Shown: piece after piece, positions 23,059 through 35,029 of the stretch
Numbering within the stretch: position 1 is the stretch's first letter
How the letters are laid out: each line of letters begins with the position of its first letter
Source: Hyphomonadaceae bacterium
GTDB taxonomy: Bacteria; Pseudomonadota; Alphaproteobacteria; Caulobacterales; Aquidulcibacteraceae
Assembly (NCBI GenBank): GCA_023384105.1
Contig: JAHDXR010000009.1
Coordinates: forward strand, 1-64,000
DNA length: 64,000 bases
Reading direction: 5' to 3'
Made by a program: the position numbers and the translations under genes
Notes under the pieces: model-generated
What the model saw: the letters and a program-made list of their open reading frames with translations, nothing else
Told to the model about the DNA's origin: nothing
Databases searched by the model: none

Positions 23059-23985
23059 TTAGGCGGCGCGCGGCGCCGCTGCCGCGCGTGCGGCTTCGAG
23101 TTCGCGGTAGAGGCCCGGGTTCTGCTCGATTGCTTTCGCGAAGGCCTGCTGTTCGGTGAACGTCGGATTGGCCTTCTTGATGTCTTCGATCACGCCCTTG
23201 GCCTTGGCGATGGGATCGCCGGCGTCAGCGCCGACATCTTCGCCGATGGGCTTCAGCATCGGGCTCGCCTTTTGCAGATTGCCCGCCGCCTTGACGATGC
23301 CGACGAAAGCGTCCGCGTCCTTGTCGCCCAGCGCCTTGCGGATGCGGGTTTCAAGATCGGCGACGTCTTCAGCTTTGCCGAAGCCGTAGGTCTTCGCCTT
23401 TGCGATGGACTCGGCGCGGGCTTGCTTGGCCAGCGACTTCTCGACTTCCGAGATGCGGGCTTCAGCTTCCGGCGAGAGTTCGGCGCCGCCGGCGGTCAGC
23501 GACTTACGCAGTTCGCTGAGCGGGCCTGCGTCCGCATCGCCCACCTTGCCGTCCTGCTTCATCTTTTCGATGAGGGTGACGGCGGCCGCGGCGGACTTCT
23601 TCAGCTCGTCGTACTTTGCCTTCGGCACCGTGTTTTCGGTCAGCTGATCGATGAACTCGGCAGCCTTGCCGATGGCTTCCTCTTGGATGGCGTTGTCATA
23701 CGCCATCGCGATGATGCCTTCGGCCTGCTCGTCGGTCAGATCGCCGCCGATGTCGCCGAGGATGGCGTCGCCATGCTCTTCAGCGAACGCCACGAAGTCT
23801 TCGTCGACTTCGGTTTCGATGTCTTGGTTCTGGTTGTCGGACATGTCCGTCTCCGTCAAATTTTCCGGGTTGCGGTTCTTGCGAAAAAGGATGCGCGCAT
23901 CGTCGTTCGCCGCACCCGAATTCTTTTCGTCGCCCTTGGTGAGCGAGATTTCCTTGGTCTTGATGTTCTTGAGGCGGCGGGCCAT
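23059..23985 (-). CDS. scaffold-like protein with XkdF-cassette N-terminus
   Basis: 308 residues; GGGGGAG stands 4 bases before the ATG. The opening ARRLKNIKTKEISLTKGD resembles the start of proteins in XkdF-type protease cassettes. From about 50 on it is acidic and helical with long coiled-coil-like segments and an Ala-rich end, as expected of a scaffolding protein that fills the prohead and is removed by the adjacent protease. Confidence 0.7.
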   Translation of the reverse strand: MARRLKNIKTKEISLTKGDEKNSGAANDDARILFRKNRNPENLTETDMSDNQNQDIETEVDEDFVAFAEEHGDAILGDIGGDLTDEQAEGIIAMAYDNAIQEEAIGKAAEFIDQLTENTVPKAKYDELKKSAAAAVTLIEKMKQDGKVGDADAGPLSELRKSLTAGGAELSPEAEARISEVEKSLAKQARAESIAKAKTYGFGKAEDVADLETRIRKALGDKDADAFVGIVKAAGNLQKASPMLKPIGEDVGADAGDPIAKAKGVIEDIKKANPTFTEQQAFAKAIEQNPGLYRELEAARAAAAPRAA

Positions 23986-23995
23986 GGCGCTCCCC

Positions 23996-24865
23996 CTATT
24001 CAGTGAGGTCGACGCGCTGGCCGCTGCCGCCGATGGAGAAGCCGCCGAACTTGCCTTCGCGATTGAGCTTGCGCGTGGCTTCGTCGGCGATGTCCATCTT
24101 GATGAACCAGCCGCGGCGGGGATCTGAAAGCCCTAAGGCCTTGGCGAAATCATCGTCGATGAGAACGCTCTCGACCACTTCGCCGACCATCTCGCCGGCA
24201 TGCATGACCTTGGCCACGCGCTCGTTCTTGATGAAGTCGTGCGCGGTCTCTTGGAGATCGGCCCAAAAGATCACGTCATCCTGCGTGTCTGTGACGCGCT
24301 TGCCGTCCTTTTCAATGACGGAGGCGAAGCCCGCAGCGTAGCGGCCGGTGATGTCGTTCTTCTCGACTTTTGTCCGGTCGATGGTGAAGTGGACGCGGGT
24401 TTCGGCGCGCTTGCGGACCGGCTTGTATTTGCCGCCGCGCAGCTTCGGGAGCGACGTGCGCCAGTTCTCACCCGAGCGTTTCGCGTTGGGCTTGCGGGTG
24501 CGGAGATAGCTCTGCGCGGCCGACGAGCGAGCAAAGCGCCGGACGTCGCCGCGCTTCAGGGCTTTCAGGCCTGAGCGTCCGATGCGATTGAAAGCGCCGC
24601 GCGAGCCACCGGGCAGCAGCCCCCTCGCCTTCTCAATGGCGGTTTCGAGTTCGGCGAGGGGGTCGGCCGATTTGCGCACGCGGCCGGCAAGGCGAAGCGC
24701 GGCGGCTTCGTATCGCCCGCCCCGCTTCCAACTCTTGAAGTCGTTGCGCCGGAATAGGGCTGCGCCCTTCCGCTCGAACTGCCGCGCGGTGCGCGCCGAG
24801 CCGCCACGGATCAGGCCCTTCCCCGCCTTCTCCACCACCTCATCGGTCTCTTTGAGTTCGGCCAT
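23996..24865 (-). CDS. XkdF-type prohead protease with N-terminal tag module
   Basis: 289 residues from ATG 24865 (GGAGG upstream). The C-terminal ~135 residues are a XkdF/peptidase-S78_2 domain: VHFTIDRTKVEKNDITGRYA, a likely catalytic His in VMHAGEMVGEV (about 222) and Ser in KFGGFSIGG (about 277). The N-terminal 150 residues are strongly basic and carry the shared module twice in looser and tighter form (4-20; DPLAELETAIEKARGLLPGG at 68-87). It should mature the prohead by cutting scaffold. The basic half is not part of the usual family. Confidence 0.8.
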   Translation of the reverse strand: MAELKETDEVVEKAGKGLIRGGSARTARQFERKGAALFRRNDFKSWKRGGRYEAAALRLAGRVRKSADPLAELETAIEKARGLLPGGSRGAFNRIGRSGLKALKRGDVRRFARSSAAQSYLRTRKPNAKRSGENWRTSLPKLRGGKYKPVRKRAETRVHFTIDRTKVEKNDITGRYAAGFASVIEKDGKRVTDTQDDVIFWADLQETAHDFIKNERVAKVMHAGEMVGEVVESVLIDDDFAKALGLSDPRRGWFIKMDIADEATRKLNREGKFGGFSIGGSGQRVDLTE

Positions 24866-24867
24866 GA

Positions 24868-25854
24868 TTAAGCGGCCTCCGATGCGGGCTTCGATTGAGC
24901 GGTTTCGAGGGCTGCGAGACGGGCTTGCAGATCGTCGAGGGCGGCCTTCGTCACCACCTCTTCGACGTTCGCGTAGGCGCCGTCCTTGAACTCCTCCCAG
25001 CATTCTTCGCCGAGAATGATCGGCCCGTTGTAGGGCTGAATGTCCTTCGGCACGTCGCCGCTGAGCGTGAGCGTGAGATGCGGAACGAAGCTCGGAAACT
25101 TCGACACCGCGCCGGCGCGGCGAAGGTCAAGCCAGCGCGAGGTGAGCGAGAGGCTTTCGAACGCAAGCACGACCGCGCCCTTGTCGCCCAGCTTCTTCAC
25201 TTCACGCACGCCGCCTTCGATGGTCTTCGTCTTGGTGCGATCTTCGAAGCGATAGACCGGGCCACAGTCGCACATCGACTTGCGCTCTTCGTTCGGCTCG
25301 ACGTGATAGTCGTCGAAGAGTGCGGCCCAGTTGAGTTCGATTGCGCTGGCGATGATGGTGCAGTGAAGCTTCTCGGCCGGAAGCAGCGACTTGAAGCCTG
25401 CCCCGCGCGCCCAGGCGAGAATGTCTTCGGCGTTCTCCACCGGACGATAGACGTAGAGGGTTTTGGCCTTGGCCTTGTGAAGCTCTTCGGCAGCTTTCTT
25501 GACCCGCTTGCGATTAACCGGACCGCCGCCAGGCGCACGCGTGCTAGGGTGCGGCTGCGCCTTCAGGCGCCCGAGCGCGCCCTTGATGTGAGAGCGCTGA
25601 AAGTTACGGAAGCTCTCGCCGCCGCGACTTGGCGACGGCAAGCTGTAGGTGGTTTCCCGCAGTTGAATCGCGCGGCCCGGCTGCGGCGCATTCTCAATAG
25701 AGAACTTGCGGCCAGAATACGCCTTCATAGGGCGCGACAGACGAACTCGCTTGCCGTTGATGATCCCCATGCGGGTGCCGTTCTTCTGGCGCGCAAGCAG
25801 AGGCTTCGCCTTCGCAATCGCCTCATTTAGTTGGTCGAGTTTGGACTTGGACAT
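24868..25854 (-). CDS. 2H phosphoesterase, Acb1-like anti-CBASS candidate, with tag module
   Basis: 328 residues. Two HxT motifs, LHCTIIAS (His164, Thr166) and FVPHLTLTLSG (His259, Thr261), define the 2H phosphoesterase fold. The surroundings, YVYRPVENAEDILAWARGAG and LLPAEKLH, match my memory of the phage Acb1 group, which cleaves the cyclic nucleotides that trigger CBASS defence. Residues 5-20 (KLDQLNEAIAKAKPLL) are the shared head-region module, and residues 20-125 are basic. Placement between protease and scaffold genes suggests packaging in the capsid. The enzyme could instead act on RNA ends. Confidence 0.7.
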   Translation of the reverse strand: MSKSKLDQLNEAIAKAKPLLARQKNGTRMGIINGKRVRLSRPMKAYSGRKFSIENAPQPGRAIQLRETTYSLPSPSRGGESFRNFQRSHIKGALGRLKAQPHPSTRAPGGGPVNRKRVKKAAEELHKAKAKTLYVYRPVENAEDILAWARGAGFKSLLPAEKLHCTIIASAIELNWAALFDDYHVEPNEERKSMCDCGPVYRFEDRTKTKTIEGGVREVKKLGDKGAVVLAFESLSLTSRWLDLRRAGAVSKFPSFVPHLTLTLSGDVPKDIQPYNGPIILGEECWEEFKDGAYANVEEVVTKAALDDLQARLAALETAQSKPASEAA

Positions 25855-25867
25855 GCGCCCTGCCCTT

Positions 25868-26014
25868 TCAGCGAAGGATGATGGGGAGAGCGATGGCGCC
25901 GATCAGCAGCGCCGCGCCCATGATGAGATCAACCTTGTCGGCGATGGCGGTGTGGAGGTCGAAGCCGAGCCCCCACTCCGCACGACGCCGGCGCGAGCGC
26001 GGCTTGCGCGCCAT
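25868..26014 (-). CDS. 48-residue membrane protein with basic N-terminus
   Basis: Begins MARKPRSRRRRAEWGLGFDL and ends in one hydrophobic helix (IMGAALLIGAIALPIIL). It fits the gap between its neighbours, ATG 10 bases past the upstream stop. The Arg-rich start with a C-terminal anchor recalls small tail-anchored proteins. Function unknown. Confidence 0.6.
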   Translation of the reverse strand: MARKPRSRRRRAEWGLGFDLHTAIADKVDLIMGAALLIGAIALPIILR

Positions 26015-26024
26015 CTCAGCTCAC

Positions 26025-26828
26025 TTAGCCCCAGTTCGCGCCGGACGCCGCCGAGACGATGACGCGGCCGGTGCGCGGATGACGCACGGCGATGTATTGA
26101 TCGGCCGGCTTGGCGGAATCCACGATGGAGAGCGTCGCAATGCCGCCGGTCGTGGTCAAAACCGTGAAGCGCTTTTTCGAGGTGATCTCTTCGAGCTCTT
26201 GGTTCGCGCCCCAGGTCGCGTCGCCCGAGATGGTGTCGCCGGTGAGCCCAATGCCGTTGGCGTTCTCGCTGATCCAGACTTCAAGCTGGTGCACGGCGGC
26301 GATGGCGTCGCCGGCAGCATCGCGAACAGTGAGGGTTGCGACCAGCGTGTTGGTTGCGCCGGCGGCGAGCGAAATTGAGACCGTGTCCGGATCGGTGGAG
26401 ACGCCCGCGTCGCCCTCGACATACCACTTTGTGGCCGAGGTCGGGATGAACCAAGCCGCGGCGCCGGGCTGGAGCACAAAGACGCCGGTGCCAGAGGTCA
26501 ACGCATTGATCTGGTCGTTGCCTTCATAAATCGGCGCAACGTTGAGTTCGTTGCTGGCGTCGGTGTTGACGATGAAGATCGCCTTGCCCGCAGAGGCGGC
26601 CGGCAGCGCAACGCCCTTCGTCCCGTCCGCGCCCGTCACCGCGTTGAGCTGCTTGGTGATCTGGGCGTAGGTGGATTGGCCCGAGCCCGCAGCCGCGAGC
26701 GCTTCGGCGCCCAGCACGGCTTGCACCTCGGAGAAGTCGAGCCCAGCGCCTTCGCCGAAGCTCACCGCGCCTTTGAATTGAACGGGGCCGAGAAACATCT
26801 CGCCGCGTTTGCGAACATTGTAGCCCAT
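26025..26828 (-). CDS. beta-rich head-region structural protein
   Basis: 267 residues, Ala/Thr/Gly/Val-rich. It opens MGYNVRKRGEMFLGPVQFKG. The middle (FIVNTDASNELNVAPIYEGN, VFVLQPGAAAWFIPTSATKW) is a pattern of beta-barrel surface proteins and the C-terminal third looks Ig-like. Probably a head decoration or fibre protein. Family not recognised. Confidence 0.65.
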   Translation of the reverse strand: MGYNVRKRGEMFLGPVQFKGAVSFGEGAGLDFSEVQAVLGAEALAAAGSGQSTYAQITKQLNAVTGADGTKGVALPAASAGKAIFIVNTDASNELNVAPIYEGNDQINALTSGTGVFVLQPGAAAWFIPTSATKWYVEGDAGVSTDPDTVSISLAAGATNTLVATLTVRDAAGDAIAAVHQLEVWISENANGIGLTGDTISGDATWGANQELEEITSKKRFTVLTTTGGIATLSIVDSAKPADQYIAVRHPRTGRVIVSAASGANWG

Positions 26829-26898
26829 TGGAGTTGTCTCCTGAGTGTGTGGGGGCGGCGATCACGCCGCGTCTTGAAGTTGTTCGGTGTAGATCGGC

Positions 26899-27003
26899 CT
26901 AAGCGATCCAACCGTTCGGAATTGCGATGGCCACGAAAATGAGCCAGGCCAGCGCCGCGACGGCGAGTGCTATGCGGAGCATTTCGAGCAGGAATCCGAT
27001 CAC
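26899..27003 (-). CDS. 34-residue single-span membrane protein
   Basis: GTG 27003 has GGAG 8 bases upstream. The product is one helix, MIGFLLEMLRIALAVAALAW, then LIFVAIAIPNG. Downstream of its stop, in another frame, lies a near copy of the last codons of the preceding gene (TEQLQDAA plus stop). Confidence 0.55.
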   Translation of the reverse strand: MIGFLLEMLRIALAVAALAWLIFVAIAIPNGWIA

Positions 27004-27039
27004 GCCGCCGTCTCCGACCTGTTGTGCGTGGGCCGCGCT

Positions 27040-27294
27040 TCAGGCGGCGTCTTGTAATTGTTCGGTGCTGAGGCGCGGCGCGATCCAGAAGTTCCAGGCA
27101 CCGCGAGCCCACGAGAACGTGTAAAGGAAGCACATGGCGAAGATGCCGTACTGCTCTGCGGTCCACGTCGCGTAGAACCAGAACGGTTGTCCGATCAGGC
27201 CGAAGATGCAGGCGTACTTGCGCAGCCGTTCGCTCTTGCTCTGCGAGAGAAACACGGCGGTTACGCCGGTCAGCATGATTGCGATCTGATCCAC
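27040..27294 (-). CDS. small multi-span membrane protein
   Basis: 84 residues from GTG 27294, overlapping the MuF stop. Two to three hydrophobic segments rich in aromatic residues (IFGLIGQPFWFYATWTAEQY, IFAMCFLYTFSW). Similar small membrane proteins are common in phage head regions; role unknown. Confidence 0.6.
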   Translation of the reverse strand: MDQIAIMLTGVTAVFLSQSKSERLRKYACIFGLIGQPFWFYATWTAEQYGIFAMCFLYTFSWARGAWNFWIAPRLSTEQLQDAA

Positions 27295-28385
27295 TATGCC
27301 GCTTCCTCCGCCAATTGCTCGGGCTCCATGAGCCGGTAGAAGACATGGCAAAGGCAGTTCGGATGCGCGGGCGCGTGCTTGTATCGGCGCCCGGACTTCT
27401 TGCTCACGAACTCCGCGTTCATCGGGATGCCGCGCTTGGGCTGATCCCGCGCCAGCGAACGGCATTCCTCGCACTCGCGTTCCGTGCGAGCGTCCTTCCA
27501 AAATTTGCGGACCAGATCGCCGTTGACCTTCCGCTCCTCAACCGCCTGTCGCCACGCTTCGCCCGTTCCCGCGTTCAGCGCGCGCATTGATTCCGCGCGA
27601 GCGATGGTTCGCGCGCGATGCTGGATCATCCGCTCCTGATAGCGATCGACCATCCTGTCGATCTGCTCGGGCGTCAGCGGCTTTTTATTTTCCTGCGCCC
27701 GGCGGATGGCGTTGTCATAGCGCTGATCTCGGAGGCGCCATTGATGGATGCCGTCTTTCGGCTTGCCGGTCTTGGGATCAAGCGGGGCAATTTCCACGCC
27801 CGATTGCTTCGAGCGCTCGTTGCCGAGGCCCCAGCGTTTCAGCGAGCGGCGCGTGTGGACGGTTTCGAGCGCGCGGCGATAATTCTGCACGGCTTTGGAT
27901 TGGCTCTCGGTCAAGCCCACCGCCTGCTTGATCTGCCGGGCTTGCTGGATCGGGTTGACGCCTTTGGTCATCCCATCCACCAGCGCCGACCGCACCGCCG
28001 CGCGCGTCCCCTCCCCGATCTCACGAATGAGGTTGAGCGAATATCCTTCAAGCCAGGTGATCAGGGCGGGGTTGAGACGCTGAAACGCGAAGCGCGCTTC
28101 ATTGAGCACCGGGCTCTGCACCGCGAGCGCGCCGCCGGCCCACACCGCGTTCTGCAGCCCTTCGCGCACCGCCTGCGCTTTCACCGGATCGACTTCGCCG
28201 ATGATCTCCAGGATGCGGTGCGTCTGGCCTTCCTTCAAAGCCTCTTCGAGTTTGGAAAGATCGACGCTGGCGACGTGATCCTTGATCAGATCCCGGACTG
28301 CGCGCGCGAGAGCAGGTTCAAGCTTTTCCGCGAGCGCTTCAATGTCGGAGGGCTTGGCCTTCTCGACGGCCTCGCAGGTGAACAA
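27294..28385 (-). CDS. MuF-like head morphogenesis protein
   Basis: 363 residues. Mostly helical, with the Mu gpF-type C-terminal pattern RTIARAESMRALNAGTGEAW, TERECEECRSLARDQP and HPNCLCHVFY, whose Cys/His residues suggest a metal site. It is made next to portal and carried in small numbers in heads of related phages. The start is TTG (28385); its first residues, EAVEKAKPSDIEALAEKL, loosely match the shared head-region module. Confidence 0.85.
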   Translation of the reverse strand: MFTCEAVEKAKPSDIEALAEKLEPALARAVRDLIKDHVASVDLSKLEEALKEGQTHRILEIIGEVDPVKAQAVREGLQNAVWAGGALAVQSPVLNEARFAFQRLNPALITWLEGYSLNLIREIGEGTRAAVRSALVDGMTKGVNPIQQARQIKQAVGLTESQSKAVQNYRRALETVHTRRSLKRWGLGNERSKQSGVEIAPLDPKTGKPKDGIHQWRLRDQRYDNAIRRAQENKKPLTPEQIDRMVDRYQERMIQHRARTIARAESMRALNAGTGEAWRQAVEERKVNGDLVRKFWKDARTERECEECRSLARDQPKRGIPMNAEFVSKKSGRRYKHAPAHPNCLCHVFYRLMEPEQLAEEAA

Positions 28386-28388
28386 GGC

Positions 28389-29039
28389 TTACTTGTATTT
28401 GCCGGTGCGGCGCAGCGATTTGTAGCCCTTGCCCGGCTCGTAGCCGAGGCCGATTGAGCGCCCCTTGCGGCGGTTGGCGAGAGTGCCGAGCGCGCTGAAG
28501 CGCTTCGATGCCTTCGGGTCGCCGCCTTTGGCTCGGGCCTTTGCGCCCTGCTCCGCAAGCCGGCGCGCCAAGCGCGAAGAGCCGCCGCGCGGGATCAGGC
28601 CACGCGCTTTATCGACGGCTTCATAAAGCTCTTCAACCGCATCCGTCATGGGAAGCTCCGCTGATTTGTAGAACGCCTTGCGGGGCTGGCCGCCTGGGCC
28701 TTTGCCGCCGCGATAGCGATGAGCGAGATAGGCGCGTGCGCGAGAGCCGCGCTGCGCGCCGGCGCGGGCTTTCTCAATGGCATCGTCCAGCAGCTCAATC
28801 GCGCTCATGACGTGCTCCGATTTGTTGACGCCGGTGGCGTAGACGCCGCTGTAGTTCCCTACGCGCGCGCGGCGCTTGCCTTTGGGGCCGAACCCCTTCC
28901 CTGCCTTCCGGCTTTCGAGATAGCGGCCGATTTTGTAGTTGCGCTCGTTTCGGTTGGTGCTGAGCAAAAAGCCGATGCGGCGGTGAAGCGGCGGCTTGCC
29001 GGAGCGGATCAGGCCAGCCTTTTCGATGGCGTCGCTCAT
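28389..29039 (-). CDS. basic three-module protein of repeated tag segments
   Basis: 216 residues, very rich in Arg, Lys and Gly, no known domain. The shared module occurs three times: MSDAIEKAGLIRSG (1-14), MSAIELLDDAIEKARAG (78-94) and MTDAVEELYEAVDKARGLIP (131-150). Both internal copies begin with Met preceded in the DNA by GGAG and a 6-base spacer (ATG at 28808 and 28649), and each is preceded in the protein by KSxE. So internal starts giving nested products, or proteolytic cutting between modules, are both possible. ATG overlaps the upstream stop. Confidence 0.65.
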   Translation of the reverse strand: MSDAIEKAGLIRSGKPPLHRRIGFLLSTNRNERNYKIGRYLESRKAGKGFGPKGKRRARVGNYSGVYATGVNKSEHVMSAIELLDDAIEKARAGAQRGSRARAYLAHRYRGGKGPGGQPRKAFYKSAELPMTDAVEELYEAVDKARGLIPRGGSSRLARRLAEQGAKARAKGGDPKASKRFSALGTLANRRKGRSIGLGYEPGKGYKSLRRTGKYK

Positions 29040-29803
29040 GGCGCCAGCCCCCGCGCCTTCGCGATGGCGGCATAAAGGGCGCTCAGCGCGTCGCGCGCTT
29101 TATGAACCCGTGCGCGCCGACGCTGGAACGAGACCAGTTCGCGATCTCCCCAGCGTACGCCGTGATAGCCCTTGCGTTTGAACTCGTGCTGCGTACGCCT
29201 TGAGGCTGTGGCGTCGTCGGCTCCGCGCTTCATGTGTTCGCGCGCGCGTCGCATGAATGTTTCGGCGTCGCCGTAATTGCCGCGCACGCGCGAGCGATAG
29301 AGCTTACCCCCAAACTGCCGCGCGGTCTTCGGCTTCGTCGCGTATGATACGCCTTTCGGCTCTGGCAGCCCCTTCCCTTGCGTGCGGGTGGGGCGAAGAT
29401 GGCGGCCCTGGATTTTCTTCGGCGTACCGTGAAAACCCGGCTGATCTACCCGATGCTTGGCCCCGGCTGGTTCAATGCGGGTCCAAGTGGGATTGGTGCG
29501 GCGGGTCGCGAAAGCCGTGCGAACCCGCTTGGGTCTGCTTGGATCGAGGCGGCGGAGCGTGCGGCCGAGGCTGGCCTTCTTGATATCGCGCGAAGCTGCT
29601 TCGTATTCGGCCTCGGAACGCATCCCCCAGCGGCGGTGGGGATTGCGACCATCGAGCGTTCCCTGCGCGCGATAGAGCAACGGCTTCTTTGAAGCCTCAC
29701 GCGCGTCTCGCACGCGCTTCGCCCGAGTGGGGTCTAGGCGACGGAGTGTCGAGCGAAGGCTCGCCTTCTCGATCGCCTCATAAAGATCATCGACGGCGCT
29801 CAT
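29036..29803 (-). CDS. ADP-ribosyltransferase-like protein with tag modules at both ends
   Basis: 255 residues from ATG 29803, which shares its A with the portal stop. N-terminal module SAVDDLYEAIEKASLRSTLR, C-terminal module DALSALYAAIAKARGLAP. Residues 13-31 and 76-94 are a direct repeat (KASLRSTLRRLDPTRAKRV / KASLGRTLRRLDPSRPKRV). The core has FHGTPKK (His125), SYATKPKTARQFGG (Tyr154), then GYHGVRWGDRELVSFQ (Glu222), the H-Y-E order of ADP-ribosyltransferases of the polyvalent-protein type. The enzyme call is by pattern only; transferase activity is not shown. Confidence 0.5.
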   Translation of the reverse strand: MSAVDDLYEAIEKASLRSTLRRLDPTRAKRVRDAREASKKPLLYRAQGTLDGRNPHRRWGMRSEAEYEAASRDIKKASLGRTLRRLDPSRPKRVRTAFATRRTNPTWTRIEPAGAKHRVDQPGFHGTPKKIQGRHLRPTRTQGKGLPEPKGVSYATKPKTARQFGGKLYRSRVRGNYGDAETFMRRAREHMKRGADDATASRRTQHEFKRKGYHGVRWGDRELVSFQRRRARVHKARDALSALYAAIAKARGLAP

Positions 29804-32364
29804 CACGCCGCCTCGCTGCCGAGAATCCAATCGTCATCAGCGCCGGCATCAAAGCCCTCTAGCGCCTTCTTGATGCGCTGGGCTTGGTCGTCGTCGTCTT
29901 CGGCCGCACCTGGCGCGCCTTGATCGCCCAGGCCCTCCTCCGGGGCCGGCGGCATGCCCGCGAGTTTGCGCGCCCAGTTCTGATCGTCTTGGCTGACGAA
30001 GAGCTGCGCGCCGGCGCCGGCCATGGTGGAGACGAACGCCGAAAGCTCGCCCAAGTCTGGCTTTTCCAGATCGCCCGGCTCGAACTTCGGCATCAACTTT
30101 TCGTCGAGCGAGTTCAATTCCCAGAGGCGCTTCAACACTTGGCGGTTCAGCACGTCCGCCATGCGCTTAACGTAGGAGCCCAGCGCCTGCGCGAAGAGCG
30201 CGGTCTTGTCGCTGGAGTTGTGCGTCGGCGTGAAGCCGTCGGTGACGTACATGGCGCTGGGCGACGAGACGCGGATGCAGCGCATCGGCTCTTCGCTCAC
30301 CGGCTCGATCTTGGCGATGCCGGGCCCCATGGGCTTGGTCGCGCTACGCCTCCGAACCCGTTCCGCCTTGCGCGTTAGCAGGAAGGGATTCATCCCGTCC
30401 GGCATGGTGATCGTGACCAGCCAAGAGCGAGTGTGCTTCTCCACCCACTCCTTGGTTTTTGGATGGCGATAGCCCTTTGAGTCGCGGAAGCTGACGCTCG
30501 CAAGCCCGCCGAGGCTGCGTACCAGCTCCACGACGCCATCGCGCAACGCGTCGCTGACTGTGCTGAAGCGCACTTGGCCAATCGTCGAGCAATAGCCGTC
30601 CGTGTCCATCAGCCCGCGCAAAAGCGCGAGGCGATCCGGAATAGACGCGCGCAGATATGGCGCCGGAATGAACTTGCTGTGGCTCGTCGTGCCGATAAGC
30701 CCGAGCGCGTCCAGCCCATTGATGAAGTGGTTACACCCGCCGCCGGTGTTTGCTGGCCCACTGATGCGGAACGCGCGCGCGTTGCTGTCGCAACGCCGCG
30801 GCGTGAGCCTGTGGTTTTCCGGTAGCCGCGCTGTGACTGCGTCGATGATTTCGGCGTCTGCCGAGAGGAAGGTCGGACCGCCTTCGCCTCCCGCACGGCG
30901 CTTTGGCATGCTGCCGTCGCCAAGCAGGACGCCTAGAATGTAGGGATCGACCGGGAGCGGAGCGGCTGGGGCATAATCCACCGGCTGAGTCACCGGCACA
31001 TGGAAGCGACTATCCTTCATGCCGGACGCCATGCGCTCCATGATCTGCTTCGTGGTCAGCACGCCGTAGCGATCAAGCAGCGGATACGGCTCTGGCGGGG
31101 TCGCGGCCCACGGCAAGCGAGCGCGGCGCGGCACGCCTTGTCGCTTCCAGAACGGCGTCGTGACAACCCATTTGTGGTCTGCATCCGCGAAGATTTCGCG
31201 GCCGTCCGCGAGCGTCACGCGATAGGCTTGCTTGACGCCGTGGTCGTAGGTGTCGAGCACCTTGGACGCGCGACCGAGCGGGCATACCACCTCGTCGCCG
31301 GGCTTGATTTCGCCCATCGTGGTCCAGCCGGACGGCGTGAGCACCTTTGCCGAGTGCGGTTGCGCCAGCGCAAAGCTGCCGACGCTGGCTTGGCCGAGGA
31401 AGATGAAATCCATCAGCACCGCAGTGGCGATCTTGCGGTCATAGCGATCGATGATGGCGGTGGTGTCAAAAGAGCGGCCGCCGCCGGAGCTCAAAAGCTT
31501 GAACTCGTACATCTGGGCGTTGCCCGAGGGCTTTCCGCTTTCGTCTTCGTAGACGTCAGACGGGATGACGACGCCTTCGTTTTGATCGCGCCGCACCTGG
31601 GTTGCGAGGCGCTTCCAGCCGTCAAGGGCGGCGCGCGCGGTTTGGTCACCGTCCGCGGCGTTCTTGAACAGCGAAAGCGGCACGCGCACCACAGGCAGGC
31701 CCGCGAGATCGCGCTCGATGCCCACCGCTTCGATCTCTTCGATCTTCGACTTGAAGTACCAGGGCCGGTAGAGCCCGCGAAGGATGCTCTCCCCTTCCGG
31801 GTTGTTCTTGATGCTGGTGGTGCGGAACAGCGCCAGCTTGTTGATCGGGATGAAGACAGTGCTCTTCCAGGTGGTCTGCTGATGCAGGCCCAGAATGGCG
31901 CCGGAGTTGCGGTCAATCTCCCAGCGCTGAATGGTGTTCTGCGCCCGGAGCGCGATTTCGCGGATGCCGTACTTGCCGTCCTCGCGCGGCTCGAAGGTGA
32001 TCTCGCACGGCGCAAAGCCATACGTGAACATGGTGCAGGCCTCGGTGATCACGTCACCGAGCGGGGTCTGCATCTTGTCGAAGACGTCTTCAGCGAACTT
32101 CTTGGCGTCTTCAGCGGCCGGGGTATCGTCCGCGGCTTTGAGCGGCCATTCGACACTGCCGACAAGGGCGGTCAGACCAAACAGCACCGCGCGGACGGTC
32201 GGATCGTTCGCCGCCATCTCGCGGAACTTGCGCTTGCCGCGCTCGCCGCTCAGCTCCGGGAGGAATTCCTCCTGGATGAAACCGCCATAGGCCTTGAGGC
32301 CGCTGTCGCCGATGGGCGCAACCACGGTTGCGTTTGAGGCTGGCGAAGTCGGGGTGTCAGCCAC
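29803..32364 (-). CDS. portal protein (DUF935-like) interrupted by a class 3 intein
   Basis: 853 residues; without the intein 470. The portal halves read GLKAYGGFIQEEFLPELSGE, VRAVLFGLTALVGSVEWPLK, PWYFKSKIEEIEAVGIERDL, IFLGQASVGSFAL, then SSDKTALFAQALGSYVKRMA. It forms the dodecameric gate for DNA at one capsid vertex. The joint in mature protein is SFAL-SSDK, in a conserved helix, so the phage needs splicing. The GTG start at 32364 overlaps the TerL end by 8 bases. The Asp-rich C-terminus may contact packaged partners. Confidence 0.85.
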   Translation of the reverse strand: MADTPTSPASNATVVAPIGDSGLKAYGGFIQEEFLPELSGERGKRKFREMAANDPTVRAVLFGLTALVGSVEWPLKAADDTPAAEDAKKFAEDVFDKMQTPLGDVITEACTMFTYGFAPCEITFEPREDGKYGIREIALRAQNTIQRWEIDRNSGAILGLHQQTTWKSTVFIPINKLALFRTTSIKNNPEGESILRGLYRPWYFKSKIEEIEAVGIERDLAGLPVVRVPLSLFKNAADGDQTARAALDGWKRLATQVRRDQNEGVVIPSDVYEDESGKPSGNAQMYEFKLLSSGGGRSFDTTAIIDRYDRKIATAVLMDFIFLGQASVGSFALAQPHSAKVLTPSGWTTMGEIKPGDEVVCPLGRASKVLDTYDHGVKQAYRVTLADGREIFADADHKWVVTTPFWKRQGVPRRARLPWAATPPEPYPLLDRYGVLTTKQIMERMASGMKDSRFHVPVTQPVDYAPAAPLPVDPYILGVLLGDGSMPKRRAGGEGGPTFLSADAEIIDAVTARLPENHRLTPRRCDSNARAFRISGPANTGGGCNHFINGLDALGLIGTTSHSKFIPAPYLRASIPDRLALLRGLMDTDGYCSTIGQVRFSTVSDALRDGVVELVRSLGGLASVSFRDSKGYRHPKTKEWVEKHTRSWLVTITMPDGMNPFLLTRKAERVRRRSATKPMGPGIAKIEPVSEEPMRCIRVSSPSAMYVTDGFTPTHNSSDKTALFAQALGSYVKRMADVLNRQVLKRLWELNSLDEKLMPKFEPGDLEKPDLGELSAFVSTMAGAGAQLFVSQDDQNWARKLAGMPPAPEEGLGDQGAPGAAEDDDDQAQRIKKALEGFDAGADDDWILGSEAA
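30217..31365 (-). mobile_element. class 3 intein with LAGLIDADG endonuclease (in portal)
   Basis: 383 residues, portal residues 334-716. Block A starts AQPHSAKVLTPSGW with Ala1 in place of Cys/Ser. Block B has DHKWVV (Trp399, two residues after the block B His), block F has RCIRV (Cys696) and block G ends FTPTHN before Ser+1 (Thr714). These are the W, C and T positions that define class 3 inteins, in which the block F Cys starts the reaction. Between them, YILGVLLGDGS and LLRGLMDTDGY are the two LAGLIDADG motifs, so homing may still be active. Confidence 0.88.
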
Positions 32365-35029
32365 GCGCAGCTCCCATGTATGGTGATGCGCGATCGACCG
32401 TCACGGGCGCGACCGCTACAGCGTCTTTTTTGCCGTCGCCGATCAGGTCGTTGTAGCCATCGGCCGCGGCGTCGACCTGGTCCTTGAACTTGCCGCCCGG
32501 AAAGAGCTTCAGCTCGTCGACAAAGTCTTGGTTCCAAGGCCCTTCAAGCATGCACACGCGGTCGTTTTCGACCTGCACCGCGAACGGTTCAGCACGCGCT
32601 TCCTTGTCGCCCTCACCCGCTGTCGGGTTCATCTTCACCGTGTAGCCATCGAGCAGCTTCACGTAGTCGGCCTTCTGGGCTTTGCCCGCTTGGCCGGGGT
32701 CTTGCGGCACGCGGATTTTGACGTCGGCGCCGGTGATCAAAACCGGCGCGCCATCGTCGACGATAAATTTGCCGGTCGACTCATCGATCGCGCCAGCGAG
32801 CTTGCCTGTGCGATCCGCGGCCGCCGTCGATTTGATCAGCGTCTGAACTTTACCTGACGAGAACTGCCGGCGCTTCACGTCGGCGACGATGTAACCGGAG
32901 CCATCCTTCAGCTTTCCGATCAGCACGCCTGCAGTGTAGGCCCCCGCCCCTTCCGTGCCCGCCAAGTCCCAGGCGCGGCGCCATTTCGACACCGGCGGAA
33001 TGGATTTGACGACCTTGATGCGATCGGCCTTGAACATGCCGCCTTCGCGCGGCGCGGGACGCTGCTGGTTTTGGCCGGCGGTGGCGTATTCGCCCATGAT
33101 CTTTTCGTCGCGGTCCACCACCTCTTCGGGGAAGCGCTCGGGAAAGATCAGTTCGCCTTCTTTGGTGCGCGGATCGACGAAGCCGATTGATGTGCTGCAC
33201 CGGCGGTCTCCTTCGAACCGCATCGGCAGGATCAGAAACTCGTAAATGTCCTTTGCGTTTTGGAGCAGCCAGCCGGAGACGTCGCCTTCGTGCAGGCGCT
33301 GCATGATGACGATGATCGCCGAGTTGAGCGGATCGACCATCCGGTTTTGAGCCGCCTCGCGAAACGTCTGCACCGTCTTTTCGCGCTCGACGGTGGATTC
33401 CGCAGTGGTGACGCTGTGCGGGTCGTCGAGGATAAGGCGGTGGACGCGCTCGCCGGTGAGCGACGTTGCCGGACGCGCAAGCCGGAGCCCGGTGTGCGCG
33501 TTCTCGAACTTCATCTTCTCGTTCTGGTCGCCCGCCATCTTGACGGGCCAGCGCTCCTGAAACCAATCGCTCTCGACGAGGATGCGCATCTTGCGCGCGT
33601 CGCGGATCGCAAGGTCGCGCTCGTAGGAGGCGCCCATGTAGCGCATGCTGGGCCGCCCAAGCGGGCCCCACTCCCATGCCGGCCAGAACACGCACGTCAG
33701 CAGCGAATTGTGAACCGCGAGATTATTGGCGGTGAACGAAGCATCCTCTTCCACGGTAAGGCAGCGGCATTCGCCCTGCCCTGCGGGCCCGACCGAGATC
33801 ACCTCATCCTCATAGAAGTGAGGATCGAAGCGGTCGCGAAAGCTCTGTTTAGCGGGCGCCGCTTTCCGCGACATCAAGCCCGGAAGATCGGCGAATTTCG
33901 ACACCTCGTTGCGCTGCGTCGTCACCACGTTGAATGACGTGTAGATTTCGCCCGCCTGCTTCTTCGTCTTCAGCTTGACGCCCTTGCGGCGCACTCGGAA
34001 GTCGATGTTGATTGCCGCCCCGAGCCGCAGCAAATCAGACGCGAGACCTTCGCTAACTGTGGTGGCGCTGGCGATCATCGTTGTCTTTGCGCCAGCGTGG
34101 CGTCGGCTGATGTGGCCGTCGCACGACCAATAGGCGCCGAGAAAGTTGCGCATCGCCGTTTCGCCACCGCTGAACACGGCGGCGGGAATGCGCTTGGTGT
34201 AGGAGTTGGATCGATACAGCCCGTGGGCGCGCAGCCAAGTTAGGACCGGCGGCTCGCCCTTATGACCGTCTTTCCATCGCGTCTCGGTCGACTTCAAGAT
34301 CACCTTCGCCGCTTTGACCAAGCGGTTCGGGTGCGCCTTCACCTCAGCATAAAAGCCAACGGCCTTCGCACAGGCGATGAAGTCGTCGATGACCTCTTGG
34401 TCGGCGTTCACAAACGCGAGCGAGCGTTGCGAGATGCAGCCGTCACCGATCAGGTAGCCGAGCAGCCTTGCCTCTTCCGCCGTCATGCCGCCTTCTTGCA
34501 GCGGCTCCACGCGATGCGGGACGGCGGCGTAGTCGCCCGGCTTCAGTTCACCAGCGGCGATCCAGCCGCGCGGCGTGAGGAATGGGTGGTCTGGCGCAGC
34601 CCGCACAGCCCGGCCGGCGAACGTCCGCACAATCACGGTGTCGATCGCGCCTTGCTCGTGCACGGCGGTCACGGCGCGAAAGCGGCCCCGGTGGGTGAGC
34701 ACCCTATCGCCAACCGCAACATCACCGAGGCGCTTGTATCCCCCATCGGTGAGCACCAGCTCATCAACGTGGACCGGTTTCATCATTCCAGGTGGCACAT
34801 TCATCACAAGCCGATTTAGCTGTGATTTGCTGACCGCCTCAAGGTGTTCGCACATCGCCTCGATGGCCCAGCCCATGGTGAGCGGCATCGTGGGCTCGAG
34901 AACGTGCCAGGCGCGGCGGACAAAGTGAGCGAGGGACCGTTTGCAGCGCTCGCGGTCAAGATCGATGACCGCTTGCGGGCTAGCGAGCCACTGAACTGTG
35001 GAGTTGTTCAAGGGCTTCGAGCTGTTCAT
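32357..35029 (-). CDS. terL: terminase large subunit interrupted by an intein
   Basis: 890 residues; without the intein 533. The ATPase half has the Walker A segment NVPPGMMK joined to SLLTCVF after splicing and Walker B HRLILDDPHS. The C-terminal nuclease half begins near RAWDLAGTEGAGAYTAG. TerL drives DNA into the prohead and cuts it. The intein sits exactly between the Lys and Ser of Walker A, so unspliced protein cannot bind ATP properly. It overlaps TerS by 50 bases and portal by 8. Confidence 0.92.
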   Translation of the reverse strand: MNSSKPLNNSTVQWLASPQAVIDLDRERCKRSLAHFVRRAWHVLEPTMPLTMGWAIEAMCEHLEAVSKSQLNRLVMNVPPGMMKPVHVDELVLTDGGYKRLGDVAVGDRVLTHRGRFRAVTAVHEQGAIDTVIVRTFAGRAVRAAPDHPFLTPRGWIAAGELKPGDYAAVPHRVEPLQEGGMTAEEARLLGYLIGDGCISQRSLAFVNADQEVIDDFIACAKAVGFYAEVKAHPNRLVKAAKVILKSTETRWKDGHKGEPPVLTWLRAHGLYRSNSYTKRIPAAVFSGGETAMRNFLGAYWSCDGHISRRHAGAKTTMIASATTVSEGLASDLLRLGAAINIDFRVRRKGVKLKTKKQAGEIYTSFNVVTTQRNEVSKFADLPGLMSRKAAPAKQSFRDRFDPHFYEDEVISVGPAGQGECRCLTVEEDASFTANNLAVHNSLLTCVFWPAWEWGPLGRPSMRYMGASYERDLAIRDARKMRILVESDWFQERWPVKMAGDQNEKMKFENAHTGLRLARPATSLTGERVHRLILDDPHSVTTAESTVEREKTVQTFREAAQNRMVDPLNSAIIVIMQRLHEGDVSGWLLQNAKDIYEFLILPMRFEGDRRCSTSIGFVDPRTKEGELIFPERFPEEVVDRDEKIMGEYATAGQNQQRPAPREGGMFKADRIKVVKSIPPVSKWRRAWDLAGTEGAGAYTAGVLIGKLKDGSGYIVADVKRRQFSSGKVQTLIKSTAAADRTGKLAGAIDESTGKFIVDDGAPVLITGADVKIRVPQDPGQAGKAQKADYVKLLDGYTVKMNPTAGEGDKEARAEPFAVQVENDRVCMLEGPWNQDFVDELKLFPGGKFKDQVDAAADGYNDLIGDGKKDAVAVAPVTVDRASPYMGAARG
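33707..34777 (-). mobile_element. intein with N-terminal Pro and LAGLIDADG endonuclease (in TerL)
   Basis: 357 residues, TerL residues 85-441. Block A, PVHVDELVLTDGGYKRLGD, begins with Pro at the position of Cys1. Block B is APDHPFLTPRGW, with Phe where class 3 inteins have Trp. Block F reads CRCLTVEEDASF with Cys423 at the class 3 nucleophile position (and Cys421 beside it). Block G is NNLAVHN before Ser+1, with Val where class 3 has Thr. LLGYLIGDGC and LGAYWSCDGH are the endonuclease motifs. So it has the class 3 Cys but not the rest of the W-C-T set. Confidence 0.85.

What the first reader, a model, noticed from the sequence alone, without database searches (positions are those of the whole stretch)
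23996..29803. A shared helical module on several head-region proteins, possibly a capsid-loading tag
At least four neighbouring genes carry a short segment of the form L-x-x-[AL]-[IV]-x-K-A-[RK]-x-[GL]. Examples: DPLAELETAIEKARGLLPGG (XkdF protease, residues 68-87), KLDQLNEAIAKAKPLL (2H phosphoesterase, 5-20), MTDAVEELYEAVDKARGLIP (28389-29039 product, 131-150), and DLYEAIEKAS / SALYAAIAKARGLAP at the two ends of the 29036-29803 product. Several copies follow a KSA/KSE sequence. The proteins otherwise share nothing but basic linkers. They lie in the scaffold/protease/portal interval, where T4 encodes internal head proteins with targeting sequences. I infer a scaffold- or portal-binding tag that brings enzymes into the prohead, perhaps cut by the XkdF protease. 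I know of no description of this module.
Basis: partly seen in the sequence, partly recalled or inferred. Interest (0 to 1): 0.85.

Follow-up and report, generated by a model that had tools for sequence, protein, structure and literature searches.

The report
Shared tag on phage head proteins
Several otherwise different proteins encoded among this prophage's head genes, including a protease and probably an enzyme that disarms a bacterial immune signal, carry the same short helical tag, which looks like an address label for loading proteins into the virus particle, although loading itself has not been shown.

Summary
L..[AL][IV].KA occurs 6 times in 423 six-frame ORFs of the window, all in four head genes (shuffles: mean 0.3). 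A profile built without them recovers the XkdF and g290 copies; the Acb1 and MuF copies are not significant alone.

Corrections: most copies follow a start codon or an internal ATG; each heads a strongly basic stretch; the 2H enzyme is Acb1 (anti-CBASS); KSA/KSE precedes 3 of 8 copies and in g283 contains a GGAG before an in-frame ATG.

Recurrence: the window's own type is known from one more contig, L048. A longer tag, MR[SN]xILKAA[VI]xAAH, marks small basic proteins and Acb1 in related head operons; a DNA pattern for it hit five viral contigs, each with 2-3 copies, from perhaps two or three lineages. Tags identical within one phage use different codons, so they are not recent copies. The two types are probably related. 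A third tag, kinship unshown, marks swapped payloads.

Best reading (0.6): a lineage-specific capsid-targeting signal like those of T4 and P1. Packaging, scaffold binding and cutting are inferred. Against: 77 of 80 portal relatives showed neither type, and type-2 proteases seem untagged.

The parts
29759..29803 (-). tag copy at the N-terminus of g290 (MSAVDDLYEAIEKAS)
29039..29092 (-). tag copy at the C-terminus of g290 (DALSALYAAIAKARGLAP)
29036..29803 (-). g290, 255 aa, pI 11.5, no Pfam match at E 10; carries a tag at each end
29010..29039 (-). tag copy at the N-terminus of g283 (MSDAIEKAGL)
   Evidence: homologue in L048
28758..28808 (-). internal tag copy of g283 behind an in-frame ATG with GGAG 6 nt upstream (MSAIELLDDAIEKARAG)
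28581..28649 (-). internal tag copy of g283 behind an in-frame ATG with GGAG 6 nt upstream (MTDAVEELYEAVDKARGLIPRGG)
28389..29039 (-). g283, 216 aa, pI 10.9: three tag-plus-basic units in a row
27294..28385 (-). MuF-like minor head protein (TTG start); EAVEKA at its N-terminus is a doubtful copy
25795..25851 (-). tag copy at the N-terminus of Acb1 (SKSKLDQLNEAIAKAKPLL); not significant alone, made likelier by tagged Acb1 in L056/L060/L151
24868..25854 (-). Acb1 anti-CBASS 2H phosphoesterase domain behind a basic stretch (residues 1-125 pI 11.7, rest 5.5)
24800..24865 (-). tag copy at the N-terminus of XkdF (MAELKETDEVVEKAGKGLIRGG)
24605..24664 (-). second, internal tag copy of XkdF, behind KSA (DPLAELETAIEKARGLLPGG)
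23996..24865 (-). XkdF prohead protease (PF14550) with a basic N-extension homologous to g283; start at 24865 inferred
23059..23985 (-). acidic scaffold-type protein (pI 4.8; named from position and weak PHROG matches of unknown function), proposed receptor
   Evidence: role inferred
29803..32364 (-). Mu-type portal with an intein-like insert; no tag found

Best explanation
The shared segment is the first helix of a small, basic, mosaic module that works as a lineage-specific capsid-loading signal. Shown: it lies on three, probably four, head-operon proteins of this prophage; a related tag recurs on different proteins, Acb1 among them, in related head operons; copies within one phage keep the peptide while using different codons; the tagged stretches are strongly basic and the scaffold-type protein is acidic. 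Inferred: during prohead assembly the tag helix and its basic tail bind the acidic scaffold core, or DNA-facing parts of the head, so that small basic internal proteins, the XkdF protease and Acb1 are enclosed; at infection Acb1 enters with the DNA and destroys CBASS signal nucleotides at once. Whether the tag is later cut off is open.
For: Window statistics. L048 homologue of g283 with three copies. Type-2 tag in L056 and L060 on three small basic proteins and Acb1 each, one of the three carrying it internally behind an ATG; in L151 on one small protein and Acb1; in L129 on four proteins. Pattern scan: 5 contigs, 12 matches, every contig with 2-3; the one contig not met before, L151, is the same kind of head operon. 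With tags removed, 41 of 45 body pairs are not similar by a 200-shuffle test. Two L056 tags agree in 14 of 14 residues but differ in 10 codons; two L129 tags in 10 of 10 with 7 different codons. Types 1 and 2: 8 of 48 cross pairs reached by at most 2 of 200 shuffles, best L048_u3/L129_6248, z 7.3. Acb1-like domains are joined to portals elsewhere: 19 of 35 matched phage records name a portal under the match, and PDB 8hds is a portal with such a C-terminus.
Against: No virion proteomics. The window's Acb1 and MuF copies are not significant alone. Type 1 is known only from the window and one 4.8-kb contig. HMMs of types 1 and 2 found no copy (8 bits or more) in four phage isolates or 14 genome regions, and convincing copies in 3 of 80 portal loci, many of them short contigs; a fourth locus gave 8.9 bits. 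The five pattern contigs are not independent: L129/L130 share proteins, L056/L060/L151 are close, L060 and L151 come from one metagenome, and the pattern was made from four of the five. Selection on orthologues is weak evidence: Acb1 tags have no change in 24 codons, but chance would give that in 11-20%, and the tag of a small protein changed 2 of 24 residues against 2 of 86 in its body. The T4 yardstick does not discriminate near score 30. Type-2 proteases appear untagged. One g290 copy is C-terminal. Models are of low confidence (pLDDT 54 and 46).
Confidence: 0.6

Rival explanations
1. A family of small basic head proteins with a conserved N-terminal helix, spread by duplication and mosaic recombination; the helix is a structural part (oligomerisation, DNA or scaffold binding) and not an address label. 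XkdF and Acb1 merely picked up copies by fusion.
For: XkdF N-extension and g283 are homologous beyond the tag; 4 of 45 tag-free body pairs are related; basic bodies; in one orthologous small protein the tag changes faster than the body.
Against: 41 of 45 bodies not similar; codon differences exclude recent copying in L056 and L129; the tag lies on Acb1 too.
Confidence: 0.2
2. The segment is mainly a cleavage signal for the prohead protease, freeing payloads from carriers or trimming termini.
For: A different tag with NPYHDxxGRF sits between domains or at the ends of MuF, portal and S78-protease proteins in other phages; T4 targeting sequences are also cut (PMC5694885, passages). 5 of 11 type-1 copies read L-x-E-A, like the T4 cut site (site recalled; count).
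Against: No cut data; 6 of 11 copies lack L-x-E-A; g290 carries a copy at its very C-terminus, where a cut frees nothing.
Confidence: 0.1
3. The KSA/KSE plus tag boundary reflects translation: ribosome-binding sites and internal starts, giving nested g283 products.
For: GGAG 6 nt before both internal ATGs in window g283 and before one in L048.
Against: The second XkdF copy and the third L048 copy have KS but no Met; does not explain the tag itself.
Confidence: 0.05
4. Chance similarity of K/A-rich amphipathic helices.
For: Acb1 and MuF copies score within the shuffled range, and one unrelated ORF scores above Acb1.
Confidence: 0.03

Closest known systems
Phage T4 capsid targeting sequence (internal proteins and Alt)
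   Same: short N-terminal peptide shared by different basic internal proteins of one phage (PMC5694885, passages); T4 also has gene 57B (Acb1 by recall; the record says RNA ligase) next to ipI
   Different: different sequence; T4 57B has no clear IP-like N-terminus (scores 16, 15, 31); here the tag also occurs inside proteins and at one C-terminus; targeting and cleavage not tested
Phage P1 DarB N-terminal targeting signal (PMC9024508, passages)
   Same: the first 30 residues send a reporter into the capsid; DarB belongs to an anti-restriction system
   Different: [quoted passage not shown] here the consensus is the finding
SPN3US gp53/gp54 propeptides (PMC5694885, passages)
   Same: identical N-termini on diverged head proteins
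   Different: propeptides of 124-125 residues, cut; giant myovirus
Phage polyvalent proteins with MuF, portal, ART, metallopeptidase and 2H domains (PMC5512222, passages)
   Same: 2H and ART enzymes predicted to be packaged and injected
   Different: there by fusion to MuF or portal; no shared tag in the passages read
Pam3 portal with Acb1-like C-terminus (PDB 8hds)
   Same: Acb1-like domain on a head protein
   Different: covalent fusion; whether that domain is resolved in the structure was not checked

Membership tests
T4-type capsid targeting sequence | one short sequence shared by several different internal proteins of a phage | tested here: inconclusive
   sharing by different proteins met; that they are internal head proteins is not shown
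T4-type capsid targeting sequence | N-terminal position | tested here: inconclusive
   4 of 8 window copies behind the start codon, 2 behind an internal ATG, 1 internal without ATG, 1 C-terminal
T4-type capsid targeting sequence | necessary or sufficient for packaging | not testable with these tools
   needs virions
T4-type capsid targeting sequence | removed by the prohead protease | not testable with these tools
   needs mass spectrometry
T4-type capsid targeting sequence | sequence homology to the T4 peptide | not tested
   both printed, not scored against each other
Acb1 anti-CBASS protein | match to PF23474 above the curated cut-off | tested here: met
   76.3 bits against 27; L056/L060/L151 homologues 119-120 bits
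Acb1 anti-CBASS protein | two HxT motifs (recalled) | tested here: met
   HCT and HLT read by eye
Acb1 anti-CBASS protein | degrades cyclic oligonucleotides | not testable with these tools
   -
XkdF prohead protease (Peptidase_S78_2) | match to PF14550 above the curated cut-off | tested here: met
   38 bits against 24
ADP-ribosyltransferase (considered for g290) | match to an ART family | tested here: not met
   no Pfam match at E 10; only three PDB matches at E 1.2-1.5, none an ART

The most novel reading that the evidence does not exclude
Phages with Mu-type portals mark their internal head proteins with fast-changing, lineage-specific tag cassettes, so that any enzyme placed behind the tag is loaded and delivered with the DNA. 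The window's version loads an anti-CBASS enzyme, disarming immunity at entry; the NPYHDxxGRF tag on MuF, ADP-ribosyltransferase, metallopeptidase-like and S78-protease proteins, and on an archaeal provirus portal, is another solution of the same kind.
Probability: 0.33. Interest if true: 0.82.

Novelty: new variant of a known kind. Interest (0 to 1): 0.63.

Why it matters
Capsid-targeting peptides are documented in T4, P1 and giant phages; the searches listed no paper that I recognised as describing this tag. A recognisable tag would let one read from sequence which phage proteins are carried in the virion, would predict that anti-CBASS enzymes can act at entry, and would offer new loading signals for packaging foreign proteins.

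Tried and rejected
Single-protein scans for Acb1 and MuF relatives in viral contigs found none. Two genome-contig scans with portal and MuF alignments found none. g283 and g290 against phage records: no match; tag peptide against phage records: no match. g283 against 385 genomes of the class: 33 weak matches besides the own genome (best E 0.003), not followed. Portal in genomes: 1 of 397 others of the order and 3 of 384 others of the class at E 1e-20. MuF as a tag carrier: dropped as unproven. ART fold for g290: no family match and a poor model. 'Acb1 fused to prohead protease' in DSS3P8: rejected, the annotated gene is only 150 aa. L152 type-1 match: single, on the strand opposite to the ORF listed there, taken as chance. 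The unbiased N-terminus scan (110 loci, 1,417,456 pairs, 260 pair rows at score 42 or more) also lists many pairs from antisense or repetitive ORFs, some scoring above the tags; part of its output was cut. A first leave-out HMM run returned nothing, probably through an option clash, and was repeated.

Full report
What is there. The minus strand carries, in order, TerL and a Mu-type portal (both with intein-like inserts), g290, g283, a MuF-like protein, several smaller genes, a 2H enzyme, the XkdF protease, an acidic scaffold-type protein and the major capsid protein. The 2H enzyme matches Acb1, the anti-CBASS protein, at 76.3 bits against a cut-off of 27. I start XkdF at ATG 24865 (MAELKETDE), inside the ORF listed from 25003; this is an inference.

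Is the motif real? L..[AL][IV].KA is found 6 times in 423 six-frame ORFs, all in XkdF, Acb1, g283 and g290; 100 shuffles give 0.3 on average and 2 at most. A profile made only from g283 and its L048 homologue finds XkdF (16.4 and 8.5 bits) and g290 (11.3 twice) above all 50 shuffled sets (best 8.1). Acb1 (5.5; 14 of 50 sets pass it, and an ORF outside the head genes has 6.9) and MuF (3.0) are not significant alone. In pairwise comparison Acb1 is borderline with g283 (6 of 300 shuffles) and not similar to XkdF or g290.

Anatomy. Four copies follow the start codon, two follow an in-frame ATG inside g283, one lies inside XkdF and one ends g290. The internal g283 copies follow KSE and KSA, whose codons contain GGAG 6 nt before the ATG; L048 keeps one of these. 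The second XkdF copy and the third L048 copy have KS without a Met, so KS may be a relic of such a start or a protein feature. Behind the tags come strongly basic stretches: pI 11.5 (g290), 10.9 (g283), 11.7 (Acb1 residues 1-125), 11.7 (XkdF residues 1-160), whereas the rest of Acb1 (5.5), the protease domain (5.0) and the scaffold-type protein (4.8) are acidic. XkdF N-extension and g283 are homologous beyond the tag (score 118; best of 300 shuffles 76), with KS, EKA, GL and GGS columns kept in L048. Models of g290 and g283 are poor (pLDDT 54, 46) but draw the tags as helices.

Relatives. A portal-based scan of viral contigs kept the best 80 of 424 loci. L048 (portal 79% identical) has a g283 homologue with three copies. 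L056 and L060 have a longer tag, MR[SN]xILK[AR]A[VI]xAAH, at the N-terminus of two small basic proteins each and of Acb1, and a variant, MQSPILKAAYAAAS, inside a basic protein upstream of the portal. L129, found with MuF, has the tag on four proteins, two of them upstream of the portal, one internal behind an ATG. A DNA pattern for ILKAA[VI]xAAH hit five contigs in the whole viral collection, with 3, 3, 2, 2 and 2 matches; four of them had supplied the pattern, and the new one, L151, is again this head operon with a tagged basic protein and a tagged Acb1. L151 and L060 come from the same metagenome, and L129 and L130 share proteins, so these are perhaps two or three lineages. HMMs of both types (8 bits or more) found no copy in four isolates (623 ORFs) or 14 genome regions (1,834 ORFs); among the 80 portal loci (7,809 ORFs) they found L048, L056 and L060, and one 8.9-bit hit in L103 that I take as chance. 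A type-1 DNA pattern hit only L048 and one probable chance place.

Why not simple duplication. With the tags removed, 41 of 45 body pairs are not similar by a 200-shuffle test; the four related pairs are among small basic proteins. Two L056 tags agree in 14 of 14 residues but differ in 10 codons; two in L129 agree in 10 of 10 and differ in 7. Orthologue comparisons say less. In three Acb1 comparisons the 24 tag codons hold no amino-acid change and 6-9 synonymous ones, against 12-16 amino-acid changes in the other 183 codons, but at those rates no change would occur by chance in 11-20%. One small protein changed 2 of 24 tag residues against 2 of 86 elsewhere. In g283 against L048, tags 1 and 2 change 5 of 16 and 4 of 19 residues and tag 3 changes 13 of 24, against 10 of 59, 11 of 22 and 30 of 47 in the stretches behind them. 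Types 1 and 2 look related: 8 of 48 cross pairs are reached by at most 2 of 200 shuffles, four of the eight involving L129_6248 (L048_u3/L129_6248 z 7.3).

A third tag. A lysine followed by NP[YN]H...G[RK]F, often EKANPYHDERGRFTSA, occurs in 13 of the 80 portal loci, in 4 of them on two or more ORFs (six in L075; several of these contigs are near-copies). Carriers include MuF, an ADP-ribosyltransferase (PF03496, 43.4 bits against 23.4), a metallopeptidase-like protein (HExxH seen by eye; Pfam match below cut-off) and, in a named record, an S78 prohead protease and the portal. L078 and L079 share MuF plus tag (94% over 341 residues) but have different payloads behind it; the L079 payload is a separate tagged gene in L078 (91.7% over 386 residues). 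This shows payload shuffling at the tag. Its kinship with types 1 and 2 is not shown.

Function. Acb1-like domains are joined to portals elsewhere: 19 of 35 matched phage records name a portal under the match, and a solved portal, Pam3, carries one (PDB 8hds). Iyer and co-workers describe 2H domains fused to MuF or portal and propose that they may degrade defence nucleotides (PMC5512222, passages). T4 and P1 show that short N-terminal peptides can load internal proteins (PMC5694885, PMC9024508, passages). As a yardstick, T4 ipII/ipIII score 59 in an N-terminus comparison and ipI with these two 30 and 32, but gene 57B with ipI also 31, so only high scores tell; in the window, with a wider shift allowed, g283, XkdF and g290 copies reach 39-58 in seven pairs, Acb1 at best 36 and MuF 32. 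I take the module as a capsid-loading signal, at 0.60. Binding partner, packaging and cutting remain inferred.

Novelty. Searches for capsid targeting with phage, Acb1 with virion, XkdF with protease, internal head proteins, prohead targeting signals, capsid targeting with Acb1, and tag strings listed no paper that I recognised as describing this tag; I saw listings only, apart from the passages cited, and only open-licence papers are held.

Noticed in passing
window 29803-32364 and 32357-35029 (-): Portal and large terminase both carry intein-like inserts with LAGLIDADG matches; the L048 portal has none.
   Followed up: partly
L078 1541-4284, L079 11366-13399: Payload domains swapped behind the NPYHD tag between MuF fusion and separate gene.
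   Followed up: yes
L154 4429-6445 (FR725450, archaeal provirus): Portal carries FNPYHDERGRF near its C-terminus and is followed by a RelA/SpoT-domain gene.
   Followed up: partly
L165 2489-2941 (KT870145 gp129): Gene annotated as prohead protease is 150 aa long and lies under an Acb1 match; probably misnamed.
   Followed up: partly
L167 11592-12411 (T4): T4 ipI lies next to gene 57B (Acb1 by recall), an internal-protein gene beside an anti-CBASS gene.
   Followed up: partly
window 29440-29803 (-): g290 has an internal repeat KASLxxTLRRLDPxRxKRVR.
   Followed up: no
window 28380-28392; L048 4040-4055: MuF lies in the same frame as g283 with only TAA GCC between them, in both phages.
   Followed up: no
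L056 5298-5495, L130 2446-3117: MTTPRL[ML]RR[LV] N-terminus shared by a 65-aa protein and a decoration-like protein in the same position.
   Followed up: no
L056 12581-12973, L060 9754-10110, L129 4840-5184: Tagged small proteins share a C-terminal NLRRxGSYS motif; g283 ends in SLRRTGKYK.
   Followed up: no
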